Origin: Desulfobotulus mexicanus
Lineage (GTDB): Bacteria; Desulfobacterota; Desulfobacteria; Desulfobacterales; ASO4-4
Length of the DNA: 64,000 nt
Assembly (NCBI RefSeq): GCF_006175995.1
Contig: NZ_VDMB01000013.1
Location: 1-64,000, forward strand
Reading direction: 5' to 3'
Below, piece by piece: positions 2,754-39,408 of the stretch; the stretch's first letter is position 1; the number at the start of each line of letters is the position of its first letter. Under the pieces are notes generated by a model that was not told where the DNA came from, made no database searches, and was given only the letters and a program-made list of their open reading frames with translations. A program made the position numbers and the translations under genes.

Positions 2754-3329
2754 ATGGAGCCAAAGCCTGTATCCCGTATCAATCTCCGGGAATTCAAAGC
2801 CATCAGCCATGCCATTTCCACCTATGAAGATCTGACGGTTCTCAACCATCATCTGGTGGAAGGTATATGTAAGGCCTTCAATATTAAAGCCTGCAGTATT
2901 TTTCTTTATGATGACAGGGAAAATCAGCTTTTCCGTGTTACCAGTTATGGACTGAGTGAAGAGTATTTAAGTAAGGGTCCCATTATTGTGGATGATAATA
3001 AAAACAGGGAAGCCCTTTCCGGAGAGGTGGTTTTTTATCAGGATATCAAAAATGATGACCGTGTTCTTTACCCGGAGGAAGCCATTTCAGAAGGTATCAT
3101 GTCCATGCTGTCCGTTCCCATAAAATACCATGAACACACTTTGGGGCTTTTGAAAATGTACCACAGTGATCCATGGATTCTCCATGAAGATGATCAGGAT
3201 TCTTTCTGTGTTCTTGCGGCCCATCTGGGCCTGCGCATAGAACATACAGGGCTAAGAAATTTCTTTGAAATGGTGAAGGCAGCTGCGGGCAGTCTGCCCC
3301 TTCGTATGATGCAGGGTCTGGCTCTATGA
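2754..3329 (+). CDS. GAF domain protein
   Basis: A 191-residue soluble protein consisting of one GAF domain (about residues 20-165) without any output domain. Typical elements are the strand ACSIFLYDDRENQLFRVTSYG, a GEVVFYQDIKNDDRV segment, and the SMLSVPIKYHEHTLGLLKMY strand pair. GAF domains bind small ligands such as cyclic nucleotides or mediate dimerisation. Its stop codon overlaps the start of the kinase-fold gene by 4 bases (ATGA) and a universal stress protein follows 10 bases after that. It is therefore likely to be the sensor part of a three-gene signalling unit. The ligand cannot be deduced. Confidence 0.85.
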   Translation: MEPKPVSRINLREFKAISHAISTYEDLTVLNHHLVEGICKAFNIKACSIFLYDDRENQLFRVTSYGLSEEYLSKGPIIVDDNKNREALSGEVVFYQDIKNDDRVLYPEEAISEGIMSMLSVPIKYHEHTLGLLKMYHSDPWILHEDDQDSFCVLAAHLGLRIEHTGLRNFFEMVKAAAGSLPLRMMQGLAL

Positions 3330-21690: not shown

Positions 21691-22841
21691 GGCACTGGTT
21701 CAGTTGAATGGGATAGTCGGATTAAGCAGCCATGGGAATTGCCAAAAGTTCTTCCCATGAAAGATCTTTGTCGATAATTCCAAAAGCAACGGCTGGAACC
21801 TGTTTCGTAGTGAAATGAGCACGTAGAAAATTATGCACCACCCAATAGACATCAAGCGTTCTTTGAAGACTCGTTTCATTTTTTGCGTATGTATTAGATC
21901 TTCTTCGAAATGTAGAATTTCTCCGGCGAAGCGAGCTATTGAAAGCTTCGCAGTGGTTGGCATGGATGTCTCCGTCTTTAATATCCTGTTCAGTGGTTGG
22001 ATGCTCAGGATGAGGTGTTTGATATTTGGATCGTTTGGGTCCTCTTTTATGTGATTGCGAGCCTTTGTTCTTTACCCTGACCTTTACTCCTTTCTTGAGA
22101 GTTTTACGGGGACGTCCCTTTTTGCCGTTCCGGATCAGCCCATGGCAAATTTCGAACAAGACATTACCATATCTTCGCTCACCATCCGTAATCAAGGACA
22201 GGTCCTGCGTTTGATTAATGAGTTGTTCCAATGTCCCTAAGGCTTTCTTGAAGAGCTTGCTGTCTTTCCTACCGCATCTGAGTTCCCAAAGAAAACGACT
22301 GGACCTGTCCATTAGTACAACAGTCCAGCCCAGTGATTCACCCGGGGGAGCATTCTTTTTGACTTTTGTATAGACCTCATCGCCTTCGATGATGAGTTTG
22401 AGGTAGACATGAAGCAGGGCATAAAGAAGCAACGTCTGTTTGATTCCAGTGAAGCGAGCCTCCCAATTGAGAAGGGTGTTCTTTGCCACATCAAAGGTTC
22501 TGCATGTGGCATTGAATCCAAGTCCTTCGGTCCTGGCCTTAATCACTTGAACTATAACGCTCAGAGGTTTTTTGATGCCAGCAAGGAAAGTGTTACAAGT
22601 CTGGGAAAAGTACCGACCACAGCTGGTGCAGCAATAAATAGTTCGCCCGTCGCCGTAGGTGGTTTTATAAGCGGTATGCTTTTTATTTCACAGCACTGAC
22701 AAGAAGGACAAGCGATCATGAAAAGTTCCATGATGAGATAGTCTCCATAATTGAATGGGTTGATAAAAAAGTATGTTCAATGAACCACTCCGTCCTTTTT
22801 GTCAATTGTTTCAAAGAATCCCATTCAACTGAACCAGTGCC
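21691..22841 (-). mobile_element. IS1-like insertion sequence, complete ends
   Basis: A 1151-bp element bounded by perfect 24-bp terminal inverted repeats that begin GGCACTGGTTCAGTTGAATG on the left; its reverse complement closes the right end at 22841. It is flanked by an 8-bp direct repeat TTTGCAAT (21683-21690 and 22842-22849), the target duplication. Target length, GG-starting ends and a one-gene zinc-ribbon/HTH/DDE transposase fit the IS1 family, although it is longer than the 768-bp IS1. The single gene inside reads on the minus strand and has one frame break. The sharp ends and perfect duplication show a recent insertion. Confidence 0.92.
21722..22731 (-). pseudogene. IS1-like transposase, one frame break in the zinc ribbon
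   Basis: The coding sequence starts at ATG 22731 (GGAGA upstream) with a CPSCQCC half zinc ribbon, but shifts frame at an A5 run near 22681-22685. The other half (YCCTSCGRYFSQ) and all later domains lie in the -1 frame. Then come an HTH-like helix (GLGFNATCRTFDVAKNTLLN), the IS1-type catalytic residues in IIEGDEVYTKV and SLITDGERRYG, and a C-terminal NHCEAFNSSLRRRNSTFRRR block with the expected Glu. An uninterrupted frame from GTG 22546 would lack the zinc ribbon. The site A_AAA has no perfect double-slip heptamer, so a mutation is more likely than programmed frameshifting, but the latter is known in IS1. Confidence 0.8.
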
Positions 22842-23121: not shown

Positions 23122-23181
23122 AAGCTAATTGCTTTTCAGCGGTGCGGCTTTTTGCGCTCCGCTGTAAAAGCCTTGTTAAGG
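23122..23181 (-). other. attC site of cassette 4 (degenerate R')
   Basis: R'' is CCTTAAC (23175-23181 on the plus strand as GTTAAGG), followed by a hairpin with arms GCTTTT-CAGCGG and CCGCTG-AAAAGC. The expected R' GTTRRRY is replaced by an ATTAGCT-like sequence at about 23123-23130. The cassette 4 stop codon TAA lies inside R''. This may be the worn end of the array. Confidence 0.65.
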
Positions 23182-23601
23182 GGCTATTTTGTCAATTTTG
23201 AAAAATACACCATCCCATAGTGTATAAGCAAAATTTTCGTTTGTTTTTATTATTGTGGAACCAGTTGCAACCCAATTAGATGGGCAACTTACCTGTAGTA
23301 TTTCCACAACCTCGCCTTCAATACTCAATTCATCAAATGTAGCTTTATATGATGAGAAAAATTTGTCTTCAGTTTTAGATTCGATTTTAAAAACAGGATT
23401 TTCACATAATTCATTACGGAATATTACTTTTTCTTTTGTGTATGTAGCGGCGGAACCAAACCAAACTTTTGCTTCTTCCATACTCATCGCACATATGCCA
23501 GGAAATTTAGCGTCGATCACCTTCCATTCCCCTATGTACCAGTCGCTTGCTTGCGCTGAACTCGAAATTAATAAAAATATAAGGATTGTAATATATTTCA
23601 T
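23176..23601 (-). CDS. cassette 4: small exported protein of unknown function
   Basis: A 141-residue protein with a strong signal peptide (KYITILIFLLISSSAQAS) and a mature part that is mostly predicted beta strand (DWYIGEWKVIDAKFPGICAM, then VVEILQVSCPSNWVATGSTI and YTLWDGVFFKIDKI). Three cysteines could form a disulfide. The WYIGEWKV opening recalls lipocalin-like proteins, but I do not assign a family. The AGGGG of the attC R' core lies 5 bases before the ATG and must serve as its ribosome-binding site. The stop codon TAA lies in the R'' of the next attC. The gene thus fills its cassette exactly and is AT-rich compared with the chromosome. Confidence 0.8.
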   Translation of the reverse strand: MKYITILIFLLISSSAQASDWYIGEWKVIDAKFPGICAMSMEEAKVWFGSAATYTKEKVIFRNELCENPVFKIESKTEDKFFSSYKATFDELSIEGEVVEILQVSCPSNWVATGSTIIKTNENFAYTLWDGVFFKIDKIAP

Positions 23602-23607
23602 TTAACC

Positions 23608-23740
23608 CCTTAACGGGGCAGCATGCGGATGGTATACGCCGCCCCGATGGCGCGGCGCGAAGCGTCCGCGTCATCGCTTTGCTCACCGGAAAATTGGGAG
23701 CGCAGCGAGTAATTTTTCCGAGTGCAGCAATTTGTTATGC
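23608..23740 (-). other. attC site of cassette 3 (133 bp)
   Basis: On the minus strand it runs from R'' GCATAAC (23734-23740) to R' GTTAAGG (23608-23614). The 133-bp length is within the known attC range, and the interior is rich in imperfect inverted repeats such as GGACGCTTCGCGCCGCGCC. R'' is the exact complement of the GTTATGC core that starts cassette 3. Confidence 0.85.
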
Positions 23741-24598
23741 ATTATCAATAAGTGTCACCGCAACATTGTAATCTGGAAAAATCGCCAAATATTTACTGTC
23801 AGTTATTTCGAGAGTTGCTTTTATACATCCCTCTCCCGAATAACCGTGCTGACATAAAGTATCTTTCAGGTTTATTAATTGTGATTGAAGATGCTCCTCT
23901 AGACTTTTTAGCATTGATCGTTGTCGGTCTGTACTTATAATTGCTTGGACGTTGTATCCGGAACCTACAACGCCACCACCAATAGGTGCGTATACCGTTC
24001 CATCCGATACCGTAAAAAAGCTATTCGCATTCTTTGCTCTTAAAGTTAGTCTTTCATTCTCTGATATTTCAGTAGCGGATATAACATTCTTGATTTGATG
24101 CTGACTGACAACATCAGGCCAGTTCCTATGTATTATCTCAACTATATTTTGATCAGCCCAAGCATCGTGATTAAATACATTGGTTGCATAAAATTTATCT
24201 TTAGTAACAAGAGCAAAGAGTAGAGGCCCGGTTCTTTCAATGAAATTTCCGTTAAGCGCCTCGCCCAAATGAAAATGGTGAACACTCCAGTCATTTAACA
24301 ACGAATCTTTATTATTTAGCCTGCCGACTAACTTGCTCAAATTTGGAGTGACATCTCCACCAGATTCAACTACGGCCATCAAGCGTTCCCAGCCAGCCTG
24401 AAGGTCTGCCGGGCACGTAAAAACATCAGAAACTTCAACGCTTCTTATTCTTTGATCGGGCCTACGTTTTTCAGCGTTAAAGTACACATAAGGCAACTCA
24501 TCTTCCGAGACGCCAGAAATATCGTATCCCCAGTGATTCTGAAGAATATCTTTGAGGATATTTAACCAGTCACCAAAAAAATCTGAACTTAGCTGCAT
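23735..24598 (-). CDS. cassette 3: protein of unknown function with HHFHLG motif
   Basis: A 287-residue soluble protein that I cannot assign to a family. The central part has a histidine-rich motif SVHHFHLG (His107, His108, His110), followed by RTGPLLFALVTKDKFYATNV and a conserved-looking FNHDAWAD (His144) and RNWPD. This arrangement suggests a metal site or a nuclease-like centre, but that is inference. I chose ATG 24598 because AAGGAG lies just upstream; an ATG at 24649 would place the start before the attC core, in the previous cassette. The stop codon TAA is inside the R'' of the next attC. It lies next to an Mrr-type gene in the cassette array, so a defence or toxin role is possible. Confidence 0.8.
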   Translation of the reverse strand: MQLSSDFFGDWLNILKDILQNHWGYDISGVSEDELPYVYFNAEKRRPDQRIRSVEVSDVFTCPADLQAGWERLMAVVESGGDVTPNLSKLVGRLNNKDSLLNDWSVHHFHLGEALNGNFIERTGPLLFALVTKDKFYATNVFNHDAWADQNIVEIIHRNWPDVVSQHQIKNVISATEISENERLTLRAKNANSFFTVSDGTVYAPIGGGVVGSGYNVQAIISTDRQRSMLKSLEEHLQSQLINLKDTLCQHGYSGEGCIKATLEITDSKYLAIFPDYNVAVTLIDNA

Positions 24599-24613
24599 TG
24601 GTACTCCTTGTAC

Positions 24614-24645
24614 GCATAACGGGGCGGGGTATCCGGCTGTTCTGC
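24614..24645 (-). other. very short attC-like junction between cassettes 2 and 3 (32 bp)
   Basis: On the minus strand R'' GCAGAAC (24639-24645) and R' GTTATGC (24614-24620) are separated by only 18 bases. Both cores match their own cassettes. Standard attC sites are about 57-141 bp with a stem-loop; the central arms are missing here, so this junction looks like an internal deletion and is probably inactive. Confidence 0.75.
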
Positions 24646-25566
24646 TCATTCATTATCAAAATAATCAGAATCAAGCTTTTTTACTTCATATTGACCAACA
24701 GTTGAAACACCTACATTATGTTCAACCATAAGTTTTGATAGGCGCTCACCATCAATAAGTATTATTTTTGATTCTATCAATGAAACATATTCAAGAGCTT
24801 CCTTGGAAAAAGATGAGGTTGTAATAAATACACCCTTTCTTGCACGTTGGCCTTGTAAAGCACCAGCAAATTTTTGTATTTCTGGCCTGCCAACTGTTCC
24901 TTCCCAACGCTTGGCTTGAATATATATAACATCTAAACCGAGACGATCTTCATTGATTATTCCATCAATTCCACCATCACCACTCTTACCAAGAGCTTTT
25001 CCTGCGTCTTGCCTGTTACCACCGTACCCCATAGTAACCAAGAGATCGACAACTACACGTTCAAAAAATGAAGGTGAGGCTTCTTTAACGGAACTTAACA
25101 CCTCAGACTCAATTGCAGATCTAAGTTTTTTATAAGCGGATGCCAAAGCATCTTCTGGTGTTTGCATGGAAGACTCTTCGACAGTTGTATCTGATGATGT
25201 GTCGCCTTCTGTTTTATCTTTTTTCCTGTTTTTGAACTCAATAAATTCAGGATATTGTTCAAGAACAGATGTATCAATTTTCTTTGGATTCGTTTTAAGT
25301 AATTCAATGCCTTTTGGGGATATTGTGAAGAAGCCCCTTTTGCGGGATTCAAGTAATCCGGCCTGTTTTAGGTATGATCTTGCCCATCCAACACGATTGT
25401 TAAAAACGGCTTGACTACCACTTGGGAGAAGTTCATTTCTTTCTTCTTGAGAAAGATCGAATTGGTCAGCAAGTTCTTCGACTGCCTGAGTAAACTTATG
25501 CTCCAATTTATCTCCAGCTAATTTTAGAACCGGAAGCATCAATGTTTGATAGTCTGGAATTGGCAT
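24646..25566 (-). CDS. cassette 2: Mrr-type restriction endonuclease
   Basis: A 306-residue protein with the Mrr layout. An N-terminal winged-helix (Mrr_N) domain (about 1-90; PIPDYQTLMLPVLKLAGD) is followed by a charged linker and a C-terminal PD-(D/E)xK nuclease domain (about 150-300). The catalytic core is visible as FFERVVVDLLVTMGYGG, then DGGIDGII (Asp near 200) and YIQAKRWEG (Q-x-K near 218), with GRPEIQKFAGALQGQRARKGVFITTS typical of Mrr. Mrr cleaves foreign or modified DNA (type IV restriction). Its stop codon abuts the short attC junction. AT-rich base use and the position in the array show it was acquired as a cassette. Confidence 0.9.
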   Translation of the reverse strand: MPIPDYQTLMLPVLKLAGDKLEHKFTQAVEELADQFDLSQEERNELLPSGSQAVFNNRVGWARSYLKQAGLLESRKRGFFTISPKGIELLKTNPKKIDTSVLEQYPEFIEFKNRKKDKTEGDTSSDTTVEESSMQTPEDALASAYKKLRSAIESEVLSSVKEASPSFFERVVVDLLVTMGYGGNRQDAGKALGKSGDGGIDGIINEDRLGLDVIYIQAKRWEGTVGRPEIQKFAGALQGQRARKGVFITTSSFSKEALEYVSLIESKIILIDGERLSKLMVEHNVGVSTVGQYEVKKLDSDYFDNE

Positions 25567-25600
25567 ATTTTTCCTATTTTTGCAAATTGGTACGATTAAA

Positions 25601-25678
25601 GCAGAACGCCCGGCTCACGCGCCGGTTTGGAGCCGTGACGCGGCGAAAAATCGGTCGCTGTGCAGCCGATTGTTAGGC
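25601..25678 (-). other. attC site of cassette 1 (78 bp)
   Basis: On the minus strand it runs from R'' GCCTAAC (25672-25678) to R' GTTCTGC (25601-25607). R'' is the exact complement of the GTTAGGC core that begins cassette 1, and R' belongs to cassette 2. Inverted segments such as CGGCTC / GAGCCG lie inside. Its 78-bp length is typical. Confidence 0.85.
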
Positions 25679-25769
25679 CGGCACTGTAAGCTGACTCGTT
25701 CAGCATGCCCTCCCCAAGAATCGCCATGCTGGTGTAACGACGCGGACGAAATTGCCATCATAGTCCAAC

Positions 25770-28745
25770 CTATCGATCAAGACGAACGCGAAGCCGCCTC
25801 GCTCGCTCCCTGAAAGCAGCTTCGCCACCTTCAAGGATGTCACAAACCACCTTGCGGATCGTAGCGTCCTCTAGCCCACCCGCTACATAGCTGATCGGCG
25901 GCAGACCACCTGAGAGATGCGGACCAGCTTCGGCGACGATGATCTGATCCGCGTCGGTATTGATCACGAGATTGGCGTTGTGCGTCACCATGATCACCTG
26001 GCGTTTCTCCTTCGCCGCGATGAACAGCGCCACCAGCTCGTCGAAGACCGACTTTGGATCGAGATTTTCCTCGGGCTGGTCGATAATCAACGGTCGGTCG
26101 TCAGAGTCGTCGAGCGCGAGGTAGAGCAGCAACAGGACGATCCCACGCGTGCCTGGTGACAACTTGCGGATGTCGACACCGTCGTAGGAAATCTCGTAGC
26201 GGACGGCGATATGTTCGGTTCCGAAAAGCCAGTGTGCGAACCGCTTCGACCACGCGCGGAATTCAGTTTGCTGCGTTGGGGAAAATGGCGCGTGCGATAA
26301 GAGGTCTTTCAGGTATTTTCCCATAAAGGCCGTCATGGCAGCCTGAACCTCGGCGGCAGAGCCGGTTTCCCATGCAGGTTTAAGAGCGTCCGTCGCGGCT
26401 GCGATCAACGAGCCGCGCCCGTAAAAAGGGCCCGCCTTTCGCCGGTCGAGGAGTTCCTCTTCGGCAAACGCGCCCCAAGTCTGGACGTCGGCAATCCTGC
26501 GGACTGAAAAGCTGAGTTTCTTGAGCGTGCCCGATGACGCGGAAAGGCGCGCCATCAGCGGTGCGTACAGGTCAGCCAGCGCGTTTTGCTCGTTTATGAT
26601 GGCCTCGAACACGCGGCCATAGGTGTCGTCGCGTTCGGCCTGCAGGTCCTTCCGCCGTGCTGCCGCGCCCTTGGCGTCAGTAAGCCGTGCTTCCAAGGTC
26701 TGAAGCGCCGAATTTTCTTGAGCAATCCGCTTTGTAAGCGCAGCGTATTGCTCACGAACTAGTTTGTCCGCGCCGAATAGCGCCTCGAGTCGTGCCATCT
26801 CTGCTTCGATCAGCGCAAGCTGAAGCATCGCGAGATCTGCGTCATCGGCAATCAGGGCAACATTTGGATCGCCGGGCGGTGGCGGAACACCGTTGAGCTT
26901 GCGAACCTCTCCGTCGGCCCATGCAGTGTAGGCAGTGAGGCTCTTGTCGACATCTCCCTTGTAGATCAGCAGGAACTCGTCCCATTGATCGGTATTGAGG
27001 CCACTGTTGTTGTGCCGCGCCTGGATCTGACGGAGCATTTCAGGCGCGCCGGTGGCGCGCATACTGCGAACCTCGTCCTGCAGTGCGACGAAGGTTCGAC
27101 GCTGATTGTTGTAGGCTTGTATCTTGGTCCTTAGCGTCTGTGCCGCCTCGCTGAGCTGGGTGTGCCTTGCGACCTGCGCTTCAGTACCCTTGACCACCAG
27201 CTTAGCCTGATCAGCGGTATAGCCAGCGATCAGCTTCTTCTTTTGCTCAACCTGATTGCTCAGGCTGGCCACGAGGCTCTCTTTCTCGAGCTCGGTAGCA
27301 ATACCCTCGGAGATGTCGGCGATCGCCTCCACCTCACGCTCGCGCGCTTGCTGGAAGCGGGCGGTCCGTTGCTCGCGGAGCTCAGTGAAGTCAATCGCCC
27401 ACTCGCGGTCGTCCTGTGAGTGGGAATCGAAGATAACGCGCTCAATCTCATCGACGAGACCATCTGAGACACCTTTGGCCGAACACAGCTCCTCGACGAA
27501 TTGCTGAGAGAGATATCTCGCACGAGGGAACGACATATGGCCGTTTGCGTCACGACCATCAAGTGCACGTGTCTCCGTCGCGCCGCCGCCCCAAGTCAGT
27601 GTCGTGGAGGAGTCCCCGATGAGTTTGCGTGCGCGAGCAAGGAACGATGGGCTGACGTTCTCGTCAGCCTCCCAACCAGCTGGAGTTATTGCATCGCAAC
27701 CGGCGGCAATCACATCGGCCAGTGCCGTCTTGCCCGATCCCCGCGCGCCTATGATGGCGACTAGGCCGGGATTGAGAGGAATATCGGGCGTGGCCGCCCA
27801 ATCTGCGTCTTCAATGTGTACATGCGAGATGATTTGCGACGGCATGGCCGAACGTGGCGGTTTCTCACCAACATAGGCCCGGCCTTCCGGATCGATGCAG
27901 GCCTGTCGTAGGGCATCAAATGTCAGTGCACCCTTGATCCACGAGAAGCGATTGTCGACTGGCTGCCCAACGGACGCTTGGTCGTGGGAGTCACTTCCAT
28001 GGAGACACGGTTTACACCCGTCATAGCGCGAGCGCAGCTCTTCGACGCTGACGCTCCGTTGGCCGATCCAGAATTCACGCTGTGCGACACTGCTGGAGAA
28101 GATGATGTGGGCGAATTTCTCTATCTCCTGGCGCACGGTCGCGTCTGCGGCCTGACGGACGCCGGAAGTGCCGTCACCGGAACCGCCAGCAACAGCGATC
28201 AAAATATTCCTCTTCGCCCATTCGCTTTCGGCGACAACCTTTCGTAATTGATCGAAGTTGACTTTGAACTGTGTGGCGCCGTGTCGAAGCGCGGCGCCGT
28301 CATCAGTGATGGTCGCGTCTGAATGTTTGCCCAGCTTTATCAGTTCCTCGCGCGTGCAGTCGAAACGGTCGCCAAAAGCATGGAACTGAAGACGCTTGAG
28401 AATGCGTTTCACTTCTGAGAGGTGCTCAGGGTCTTCAGGGCTGACCAGCAAATGGATGTTTACGAAGCCCGTTTTAGCCGCCACATCGAGGCGCAGTTCG
28501 ATGTTAGGGAAGATTAAAGACACATCGGGCAATCGGCCTGCGCTCTTATGCTGAAGGAATTCCTCATATGTGTCGGTAACGTAGTAGTCAGTGACCGCGA
28601 CCGCCTCGACCCTCGGCGTCAAGGCTTCGAGCGTCGAGAGGTATGAGCTCCAGGGGTCGGATACACCGAACTGATTGTTGAGGATAGTGCCGGGCGCATG
28701 GATATGCGGCTCCCATCTATGCCATTCAGAACCGCGATTGATCAC
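25770..28745 (-). CDS. cassette 1: PHP-domain / SMC-like AAA ATPase (TrlF-like)
   Basis: A 991-residue protein. Residues 1-300 form a PHP-type metal phosphoesterase-like domain opening with HIHAPG (His14, His16) and containing LHGSDSHDQ. Residues about 325-991 form an SMC/RecF-like ATPase: Walker A IGARGSGKTALAD near residue 337, a long coiled coil (about 450-760), then LSPGTRGIVLLLLYLAL signature, Walker B LIIDQPEENLDPK near 892 and the H-loop VMVTHNANLV-like segment near 919. This layout matches TrlF-family proteins, some of which lie in defence islands. It is unusually long for an integron cassette, and its GC-rich codon use differs from the host and from the other cassettes. A role in phage or plasmid defence is inference. 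Confidence 0.87.
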   Translation of the reverse strand: MINRGSEWHRWEPHIHAPGTILNNQFGVSDPWSSYLSTLEALTPRVEAVAVTDYYVTDTYEEFLQHKSAGRLPDVSLIFPNIELRLDVAAKTGFVNIHLLVSPEDPEHLSEVKRILKRLQFHAFGDRFDCTREELIKLGKHSDATITDDGAALRHGATQFKVNFDQLRKVVAESEWAKRNILIAVAGGSGDGTSGVRQAADATVRQEIEKFAHIIFSSSVAQREFWIGQRSVSVEELRSRYDGCKPCLHGSDSHDQASVGQPVDNRFSWIKGALTFDALRQACIDPEGRAYVGEKPPRSAMPSQIISHVHIEDADWAATPDIPLNPGLVAIIGARGSGKTALADVIAAGCDAITPAGWEADENVSPSFLARARKLIGDSSTTLTWGGGATETRALDGRDANGHMSFPRARYLSQQFVEELCSAKGVSDGLVDEIERVIFDSHSQDDREWAIDFTELREQRTARFQQAREREVEAIADISEGIATELEKESLVASLSNQVEQKKKLIAGYTADQAKLVVKGTEAQVARHTQLSEAAQTLRTKIQAYNNQRRTFVALQDEVRSMRATGAPEMLRQIQARHNNSGLNTDQWDEFLLIYKGDVDKSLTAYTAWADGEVRKLNGVPPPPGDPNVALIADDADLAMLQLALIEAEMARLEALFGADKLVREQYAALTKRIAQENSALQTLEARLTDAKGAAARRKDLQAERDDTYGRVFEAIINEQNALADLYAPLMARLSASSGTLKKLSFSVRRIADVQTWGAFAEEELLDRRKAGPFYGRGSLIAAATDALKPAWETGSAAEVQAAMTAFMGKYLKDLLSHAPFSPTQQTEFRAWSKRFAHWLFGTEHIAVRYEISYDGVDIRKLSPGTRGIVLLLLYLALDDSDDRPLIIDQPEENLDPKSVFDELVALFIAAKEKRQVIMVTHNANLVINTDADQIIVAEAGPHLSGGLPPISYVAGGLEDATIRKVVCDILEGGEAAFRERARRLRVRLDR

Positions 28746-28803
28746 TTACATCTCCAAATTATCATTCTTGTTTAGGTCGCCACGACCCGATTCAATAGGA
28801 AAG

Positions 28804-28810
28804 GCCTAAC
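28804..28810 (-). other. core site GTTAGGC at the upstream border of cassette 1
   Basis: On the minus strand this 7-mer starts cassette 1 and is complementary to the R'' of its attC. It belongs either to an attI site or to the right half of a lost upstream attC; the DNA beyond it has no recognisable left half. Confidence 0.7.
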
Positions 28811-29086
28811 AAGTTATTGTGCTGATCCGTATAACCTTCAGATCTCTTTGAAATCACCTAGGTCAATAGGCACAAGACCATAAATTTCTATCTGGATAAC
28901 ACGTCTTTTTGCCTGTTAATCAGAAATCCATACAGTTACAAACTTAAGGTTTCAAAAGTATCTTTCCCATAAAAACAGAAACCTCATTTTTTATCCATAA
29001 AACACTCTTCCTCTGACTACAAGTTTTCTTTTTCCGGGTATCATCCTGCCGCAAGCCTGCTTTTCCCATGCTATTCAGCTTCGGTT
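28811..29086. other. non-coding stretch upstream of the cassette array
   Basis: AT-rich DNA between the first cassette and the alpha/beta hydrolase gene. It could be a leader with a promoter reading into the array, or an attI remnant. No integrase gene and no convincing promoter were identified. Confidence 0.4.
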
Positions 29087-38508: not shown

Positions 38509-39408
38509 CTATGTACTTCTGGGGTGAAAACGTCTGTGAACTTCCTTAAGACCTTTGCGGTTCACATGGGTGTAGATCTGGGTGGTGGCAATATCCGCAT
38601 GGCCCAGCAGGGCCTGCACCACCCGAAGATCCGCCCCACCTTCCAGAAGGTGGGTGGCAAAGGCATGCCGCAGGCTGTGGGGTGTTATCAGTCTGGCAAT
38701 GCCTGCCTTCAGGCTGTAGCGTTTCACGTTTTTCCAGAAGGCCTGACGGGTGAGGGGCTTTCCCGTTCCGCCCACAAAGAGATAATCACTGAAGCGGGTT
38801 TTCAAAATGCGTGGTCGTCCTTCATCCATATACAGTGAAAGGCTCTGCCTTGCTTTTTGATGGAAGGGCACCACCCTTTCCCGGCTTCCCTTGCCCTGCA
38901 CCCTTAAAAATCCGGCATCCATACGAAGATCTGTAACTTTTAGCCCCATGAGTTCTGAAACCCTCAGACCCGTTGCGTAGAGCAGCTCCAGCATGGCCCT
39001 GTCCCGGAGTCCCAGAGCTGTATCCATGGCCGGAGCGGAGAGAAGTGCTTCCATTTCCGTAAATGAAGGCACATCCGGGAGTTTCCGGCCTGTGCGGGGC
39101 AGGCGGACAATTCGGGAAGGATCTTTTTCCAGTGTTTCCAATGAGGCAAGGAAGGTGAAAAAGCCCCGGATGCTTACCAGATGCCGCCCCCGGCTGCGGG
39201 CTGCAAGTCCTTCCTTTTCAAGGTGAACAAGGTAGGCCAGAAGATCCATGGGTGCAAGCTCTTCCACCTCAAGATCATTTTCTTTTACATAATGAAGAAA
39301 ACGACCAAGGTCTTCCGCATAGGCGCTCAGGGTCAGCTCCGCCAGACCCTTTTCGATGAGAAGATGTCGCAGATAGGCATCCAGCAGGGGGTGCGGGTCT
39401 GTATTCAT
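38509..39408 (-). CDS. xerD: tyrosine recombinase XerD
   Basis: A 299-residue site-specific recombinase of normal XerD length. The N-terminal SAM-like core-binding domain spans about 5-95, and the catalytic domain 110-299. The active-site set is complete: Arg149 (TGLRVSELMGL), Lys173 (QGKGSRER), His244 and Arg247 (PHSLRHAFATHLLEGG), His270 (LLGHADIATTQIYTH) and nucleophile Tyr279. It should resolve chromosome dimers at dif together with XerC. Its start overlaps the stop of the Xaa-Pro peptidase gene by 4 bases. It is not an integron integrase: the extra helix patch of IntI is absent and it lies 10 kb from the cassettes. Confidence 0.93.
   Translation of the reverse strand: MNTDPHPLLDAYLRHLLIEKGLAELTLSAYAEDLGRFLHYVKENDLEVEELAPMDLLAYLVHLEKEGLAARSRGRHLVSIRGFFTFLASLETLEKDPSRIVRLPRTGRKLPDVPSFTEMEALLSAPAMDTALGLRDRAMLELLYATGLRVSELMGLKVTDLRMDAGFLRVQGKGSRERVVPFHQKARQSLSLYMDEGRPRILKTRFSDYLFVGGTGKPLTRQAFWKNVKRYSLKAGIARLITPHSLRHAFATHLLEGGADLRVVQALLGHADIATTQIYTHVNRKGLKEVHRRFHPRST

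What the first reader, a model, noticed from the sequence alone, without database searches (positions are those of the whole stretch)
25770..28745. A 991-residue PHP/SMC-like ATPase carried as a single integron cassette
Most integron cassettes carry genes below 1 kb, while this cassette is about 3.2 kb. The protein joins a PHP metal-phosphoesterase-like domain with a complete SMC/RecF-type ATPase and coiled coil, a layout seen in TrlF-like proteins linked to defence islands. GC-rich codon use sets it apart from its AT-rich array neighbours and suggests a distant donor.
Basis: partly seen in the sequence, partly recalled or inferred. Interest (0 to 1): 0.65.

Follow-up and report, generated by a model that had tools for sequence, protein, structure and literature searches.

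The report
Giant integron cassette carrying TrlF defence protein
A 3.2-kb mobile integron cassette carries one large, intact gene for a predicted nuclease-ATPase related to a known anti-phage protein; its recombination site points to Halomonas-type bacteria as the source, and the next two cassettes also look like phage-defence genes.

Summary
It is cassette 1 of a four-cassette integron array; the TrlF cassette is 28809–25607 (3203 bp). All four cassettes have exactly self-complementary 7-bp cores, and DNA homology to a Halomonas halodenitrificans copy ends at both cut sites. The protein is an intact TrlF-family member (NF045780, 719 bits; cut-off 350): a PHP domain (EndoQ/RNase AM-like fold) plus an SMC/Rad50-type ATPase, distantly co-linear with the anti-phage exonuclease Ppl. 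Its array neighbours are a Mrr-type REase and a PD-T4-7 homologue. TrlF neighbours elsewhere are enriched in defence genes (at least 12–13 of 100, against 1 of 100 near recA). Its attC is the type found in many Halomonadaceae after unrelated genes, pointing to the donor. The array follows an attI-like site without an adjacent integrase; similar sites recur in the genome and beside its intI, and a sister genome, 98% identical in the flank, carries other cassettes there. Known protein family in a known kind of vehicle; unusual for size, traceable donor and dispersed attI-like sites. Anti-phage activity and mechanism are inferred, not tested.

The parts
25607..28809 (-). TrlF integron cassette, 3203 bp, first in the array
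   Evidence: G^TT cut sites with cores GTTAGGC/GCCTAAC; DNA homology ends there in other genomes
25770..28745 (-). TrlF-family PHP/SMC-like ATPase, 991 aa, GTG start
   Evidence: NF045780 719.5 bits, cut-off 350, whole length; dN/dS about 0.1 against Halomonas and Marinobacterium copies
27846..28745 (-). PHP domain, residues 1-300 (H14, H16, D53/Y54, E83, H98, D252, H254)
   Evidence: AlphaFold model pLDDT 89.7, pTM 0.90; EndoQ 7k30 Z 13.5, RNase AM Z 12.3; invariance
27486..27836 (-). ATPase head, N-terminal lobe (residues 304-420: Walker A G333-T340, Q-loop Q414)
26538..27389 (-). coiled-coil region (residues 453-736)
   Evidence: model secondary structure
25794..26516 (-). ATPase head, C-terminal lobe (residues 744-984: signature LSPGTRG, Walker B LIIDQPEENLD, H922)
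25601..25678 (-). attC of the TrlF cassette, Halomonadaceae type
   Evidence: hairpin fold of the bottom strand; same site at 76-96% identity in many Halomonadaceae
28811..28940 (-). attI-like leader without adjacent intI
   Evidence: aligned with intI-upstream region and with leaders of other arrays of the genus
24620..25606 (-). second cassette, 987 bp
   Evidence: cores GTTCTGC/GCAGAAC
24646..25566 (-). Mrr-type (type IV) restriction endonuclease, 306 aa
   Evidence: PF04471/PF14338; PADLOC mREase_IV 350.6 bits
24614..24645 (-). shortened attC (32 bp) of the Mrr cassette
23614..24619 (-). third cassette, 1006 bp
   Evidence: cores GTTATGC/GCATAAC
23735..24598 (-). PD-T4-7 homologue; the ATG at 24598 behind GGAG is the likelier start, the ORF runs from 24649
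   Evidence: PADLOC PD-T4-7 E 5.5e-31; start read from sequence
23608..23740 (-). attC of the PD-T4-7 cassette
23126..23613 (-). fourth cassette (141-aa ORF at 23176-23601, unknown) and its attC with a degenerate R' core
   Evidence: cores GTTAAGG/CCTTAAC; fold z -3.8

Best explanation
A single-gene anti-phage system of the Ppl/TrlF kind, moved as an unusually large integron cassette. Shown by sequence: an intact full-length TrlF under purifying selection; a cassette with exact boundaries; an attC of Halomonadaceae type; and position one behind an attI-like site, with two further defence-like cassettes behind it. Inferred mechanism: the SMC/Rad50-like ATPase head with its coiled coil senses DNA ends or an abnormal DNA state (and possibly nucleotide level, as reported for Ppl) and licenses the N-terminal PHP domain to cut or degrade invading DNA. 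Also inferred: the cassette was inserted by the genome's own IntI (contig C3) acting in trans on an attI copy that has no intI beside it.
For: TrlF family, whole length. Invariant PHP and ABC motifs in 60 relatives. PHP domain model matches nucleases EndoQ and RNase AM; ATPase part matches SMC/Rad50 heads. Co-linear with Ppl-like proteins, hhalign 99.9%, E 1e-34; Ppl reported as a PHP ssDNA exonuclease defence (PMC12904381). Array neighbours Mrr-type REase and PD-T4-7. Defence enrichment around homologues, 12-13 or more of 100 against 1 of 100. Cassette boundaries and donor. attI-like leader and cassette turnover. dN/dS about 0.1.
Against: No activity has been tested. The PHP site lacks the motif II and motif V histidines of Ppl-like proteins, so catalysis could differ or be lost. 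It scores only 119 bits on the Ppl model (cut-off 1000). In Photorhabdus the trl operon was studied for temperature restriction, not phage (PMC7554251). The defence control (recA neighbours) is a housekeeping region, so part of the enrichment may only reflect that TrlF sits on accessory DNA. No promoter was recognised in the leader.
Confidence: 0.65

Rival explanations
1. An anti-plasmid or general foreign-DNA system (Wadjet-like logic): the SMC-type part senses DNA topology and the PHP domain cuts plasmids; phage protection is incidental.
For: The ATPase part matches SMC heads, including Wadjet JetC, by structure.
Against: Single gene with no recurrent partner in the close clade, unlike Wadjet; relatives are themselves carried on plasmids, 321 plasmid records with a match and 37 full-length.
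Confidence: 0.15
2. A stress or DNA-repair ATPase (as in the temperature-restriction locus of Photorhabdus) that travels with mobile DNA and is not primarily a defence gene.
For: trlF lies in the TRL operon, where trlG mutations give temperature tolerance (PMC7554251); PHP proteins also act in repair.
Against: No trlF mutations were found among the tolerant clones; the window clade has no TrlG; sporadic in the phylum, 34 of 395 genomes; neighbours rich in defence genes.
Confidence: 0.12
3. The boundaries are a chance or IS-made arrangement, not an integron cassette.
For: No intI next to the array; an IS1-like transposase lies just beyond it (21722-22546); the Mrr attC is only 32 bp.
Against: Four of four cassettes with exact core complementarity; the same ends in other genomes; attC shared with Halomonadaceae loci after unrelated genes; attI-like leader.
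Confidence: 0.02

Closest known systems
TrlF family AAA-like ATPase (NCBIfam NF045780; Photorhabdus TRL operon)
   Same: Whole-length match, 719.5 bits; PHP plus ABC ATPase layout
   Different: Only 16-23% identical to 19 TrlFs of the window's phylum, most of which sit next to TrlG; the window clade has no TrlG, has Tyr in motif II and lacks the motif V His; carried in an integron cassette
Ppl (NCBIfam NF042955), single-gene anti-phage PHP exonuclease
   Same: Co-linear over residues 1-986, same PHP plus ATPase order, single gene
   Different: 118.9 bits against a cut-off of 1000; 23% identity to Ppl-like proteins; two PHP histidines replaced
Phage-defence cassettes of integrons (Vibrio SCIs, mobile integrons; reviewed in PMC12409362)
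   Same: Defence-like genes as single cassettes with attC sites; several in one array
   Different: CDS of 2976 bp against medians of 362-575 bp in integrons (PMC5371416); the review reports streamlined small systems; array at an attI-like site without intI
Wadjet and Lamassu SMC-like complexes
   Same: SMC-type ATPase head with coiled coil
   Different: One polypeptide carries both ATPase and nuclease-like domain; PHP domain instead of other nuclease types; no kleisin or partner genes

Membership tests
TrlF family (NF045780) | Whole-protein HMM score above the curated cut-off | tested here: met
   719.5 bits, cut-off 350, profile 1-943/944
TrlF family (NF045780) | N-terminal PHP domain plus C-terminal ABC ATPase in one chain | tested here: met
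TRL operon (trlR-trlF-trlG) | TrlG (AlbA_2 + HATPase) next to TrlF | tested here: not met
   None beside the window gene; none within 4 kb of close-clade loci, though 11 of 19 loci of the window's phylum have it
Ppl (NF042955) | Whole-protein HMM score above the curated cut-off | tested here: not met
   118.9 bits, cut-off 1000
Ppl (NF042955) | Full-length co-linear homology | tested here: met
   hhalign with four Ppl-like proteins, themselves below the Ppl cut-off: 99.9%, E 1.2e-34, residues 1-986
Ppl (NF042955) | NTP-inhibited 3'-5' ssDNA exonuclease activity and phage protection | not testable with these tools
   -
PHP phosphoesterases | PHP fold with HxH, E, H and DxH ligands | tested here: met
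   H14, H16, E83, H98, D252, H254 invariant; EndoQ Z 13.5, RNase AM Z 12.3
PHP phosphoesterases | Canonical motif II and motif V histidines | tested here: not met
   Y54 instead of His; no motif V His in this clade
SMC/Rad50 ABC ATPases | Walker A, Q-loop, signature, Walker B with catalytic Glu, H-loop; head fold with coiled coil | tested here: met
Integron gene cassette | G^TT boundaries with R'/R'' cores that complement each other, attC hairpin | tested here: met
Integron gene cassette | Moves as a unit: same ends in different genomes | tested here: met
   Left end in five other genomes, both ends in H. halodenitrificans
Integron gene cassette | Excision/insertion by IntI | not testable with these tools
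   -
Complete integron at this locus | intI next to attI and the array | tested here: not met
   The only full-length IntI match is on C3; an attI-like leader is present here
Wadjet/Lamassu SMC complexes | Multi-gene SMC complex with separate nuclease subunit | tested here: not met
   Single gene with no recurrent partner

The most novel reading that the evidence does not exclude
A dispersed integron: one integrase serves several intI-less attI copies around the chromosome, each loaded with different and often defence-like cassettes, and by this route a 3.2-kb single-gene PHP-SMC protein, far larger than the usual integron gene, was imported from Halomonadaceae-type integrons and put in the first position.
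Probability: 0.4. Interest if true: 0.65.

Novelty: new member of a known kind. Interest (0 to 1): 0.5.

Why it matters
Integrons are now seen as stores of small phage-defence genes, and cassette size is thought to limit what they hold. An intact, selected 991-residue predicted nuclease-ATPase that moves as one cassette between distant bacteria indicates that a whole SMC-type defence protein fits. The likely donor can be read from the attC. The dispersed attI-like sites, with different cassettes in sister genomes, make cassette import in trans directly testable.

Tried and rejected
A strict attC scan missed all four sites because the cores are degenerate; manual reading plus the core-complementarity test replaced it. 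No sigma-70-like promoter was recognised in the leader on the gene's strand, so position-one expression is not shown. PDB sequence search found no solved Ppl/TrlF relative beyond generic ABC heads. The IMG/VR hit L091 has the same flanks as Halomonas ALS9, so it is not independent evidence of phage carriage; annotated phages hold no full-length relative. The pAgo matches among TrlF neighbours are TrlG's AlbA_2 part and were left out of the enrichment count. An IS-made or chance origin of the boundaries was rejected. Codon use alone as donor evidence was set aside in favour of the attC.

Full report
What is there. The 991-codon ORF at 25770–28745 is on the minus strand, with a GTG start behind a GGAG. 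It is a member of the NCBIfam TrlF family, 719.5 bits against a cut-off of 350 over its whole length.

The cassette. Read on the minus strand, the array is: leader, G^TT at 28810/28809, TrlF cassette (28809–25607, 3203 bp), Mrr cassette (25606–24620), PD-T4-7 cassette (24619–23614), and a fourth cassette with a 141-aa ORF. In each cassette the 7-bp core at its start is the exact reverse complement of the core that opens its own attC (GTTAGGC/GCCTAAC, GTTCTGC/GCAGAAC, GTTATGC/GCATAAC, GTTAAGG/CCTTAAC). One such match within ±100 nt of the expected place has a chance of 3.4% in this window. The TrlF attC bottom strand folds into the expected hairpin with extra-helical bases, although its energy is only moderately better than shuffles (z -1.9). 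The Mrr attC is shortened to 32 bp.

The same cassette elsewhere. DNA similarity to the window copy starts at 28810–28808 in Marinobacterium stanieri (89%), Vreelandella titanicae (92%, frameshifted), Halomonas sp. ALS9 (92%), Halomonas halodenitrificans (93%) and a Holophagaceae MAG (85%). In H. halodenitrificans it ends at the other cut site too, with a classical attC upstream and the same attC downstream; that copy lies on two contigs, with an IS3-like ORF beside the break. In the other copies the right end is lost before the attC. Most other homologues match only over the gene. In the tree, the window, Halomonas and Marinobacterium copies fall with one other row in a set of 100% SH-aLRT support, with the Holophagaceae copy next to it. 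Against the Halomonas ALS9 and Marinobacterium copies dN is 0.03–0.04 and dS 0.28–0.42, so the protein is kept under selection.

The donor. A search with the whole cassette in 250 Halomonadaceae genomes hit 90, and in nearly all of these only at query bases about 3131–3203, the attC, at 76–96% identity. In 17 such loci checked (Halomonadaceae and other genomes of that class), the DNA upstream of the site is unrelated from locus to locus and the outer cores differ. The TrlF cassette therefore carries the attC type of Halomonadaceae integrons. This fits its GC content (GC3 0.66, against 0.24–0.34 in the other cassettes).

The landing site. The sequence before the cassette (28940–28811) recurs in the same genome before an array on C19, in part on C12 before a caspase-like cassette, and in two congeners before their arrays. 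It aligns end to end with the region upstream of the genome's only full-length IntI gene (C3, 369.5 bits), ending at the same ACAATAA..TG^TT; local score 48, shuffle mean 21, 1 of 500 as high. That intI-proximal region is conserved in both congeners up to the same point. I read these as attI copies without intI. In sister genome G1015 the flank is 97.9% identical over 8.2 kb and the sequence beyond the boundary is different; G1014 has another PD-T4-7 cassette at its copy. Arrays at this site turn over quickly, and TrlF, being in position one, is probably the latest arrival.

What it does. Residues 1–300 model well (pLDDT 89.7, pTM 0.90). The nearest solved folds are EndoQ (7k30, Z 13.5, rmsd 3.6 over 217 residues), RNase AM (9etk, Z 12.3, rmsd 3.8 over 213) and the PHP domains of Pol III and PolC. 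H14, H16, E83, H98, D252 and H254 are invariant in 60 relatives. The motif II histidine is Tyr54 and the motif V histidine is missing in this clade, so the metal site is not the full canonical set. The rest of the full model (pLDDT 78, pTM 0.56) matches SMC and Rad50 heads (5h68 Z 15.9, rmsd 3.9 over 265), with Walker A, Q-loop, signature, Walker B and H-loop intact. A profile comparison with four Ppl-like proteins aligns residues 1–986 co-linearly (probability 99.9, E 1e-34), although the Ppl model itself scores only 119 against a cut-off of 1000. Ppl is reported as a single-gene anti-phage 3'-5' ssDNA exonuclease held back by NTPs and released by nucleotide depletion plus 3' ends (PMC12904381).

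Context of homologues. Among 100 genes nearest to TrlF in genomes of the window's own phylum, at least 13 match PADLOC families at E 1e-10 (counting only type I methylase, type I specificity, GajB and AriA, and leaving out TrlG), against 1 of 100 near recA in the same genomes (Fisher p 0.0006). For the close clade about 12 of 100 match (PDC-S01, PDC-M01A, PtuA, QatA, HamA, PD-T4-6 and others; p 0.0013 against the same control). The tool counts per family, so these sums assume that the families hit different proteins; several PDC families are candidates only. In the window's phylum TrlF often sits next to TrlG (AlbA_2 plus HATPase): 11 of 19 loci. None of the close-clade loci has TrlG within 4 kb, and no other partner recurs in more than 6 of them. 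The window's clade thus looks like a one-gene form, which suits a cassette.

Size. Median CDS lengths in mobile and chromosomal integrons are 575 and 362 bp (PMC5371416); this CDS is 2976 bp. Synthetic cassettes with 3-kb inserts are still excised in that paper (5e-5 in one set), so the size is unusual but not prohibitive. [quoted passage not shown] I found no paper on TrlF in integrons in the held library, but the primary integron-defence papers are not held.

Verdict. The protein family and the idea of defence cassettes are known; the size of the cassette, the traceable donor and the dispersed attI-like sites are the interesting parts. Anti-phage function, nuclease activity, IntI action in trans and expression are inferred.

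Noticed in passing
window 28811-28940; G000:C19:46431-46554; G000:C12:90822-90851; G000:C3 upstream of intI: Copies of an attI-like site at several places in one genome, most without an integrase gene; each is followed by cassettes.
   Followed up: partly
G000:C12:89235-90800 (L197): Caspase-like 521-aa ORF behind an attI-like leader, with an attC after its stop; a radical-SAM-like ORF follows.
   Followed up: partly
G000:C19:44796-45779 (L158): RhuM-family protein matching PADLOC candidate defence family PDC-S05, near the second attI-like site.
   Followed up: no
L157 (G1014:C38:1579-5333): In a congener the end of the hydrolase gene plus the attI-like leader is duplicated, each copy followed by a cassette.
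   Followed up: no
window 24614-24645: The attC of the Mrr cassette is only 32 bp, much shorter than usual, though its outer cores are exact.
   Followed up: no
L133 (G531:C9:632-704): An OXA-type beta-lactamase-like ORF precedes a Halomonadaceae-type attC.
   Followed up: no
window 38539-39372 (-): A 304-aa tyrosine recombinase that partly matches the IntI model, well below the cut-off.
   Followed up: no
window 21722-22546 (-): IS1-like transposase (weak NF033558 match) just beyond the end of the array.
   Followed up: no
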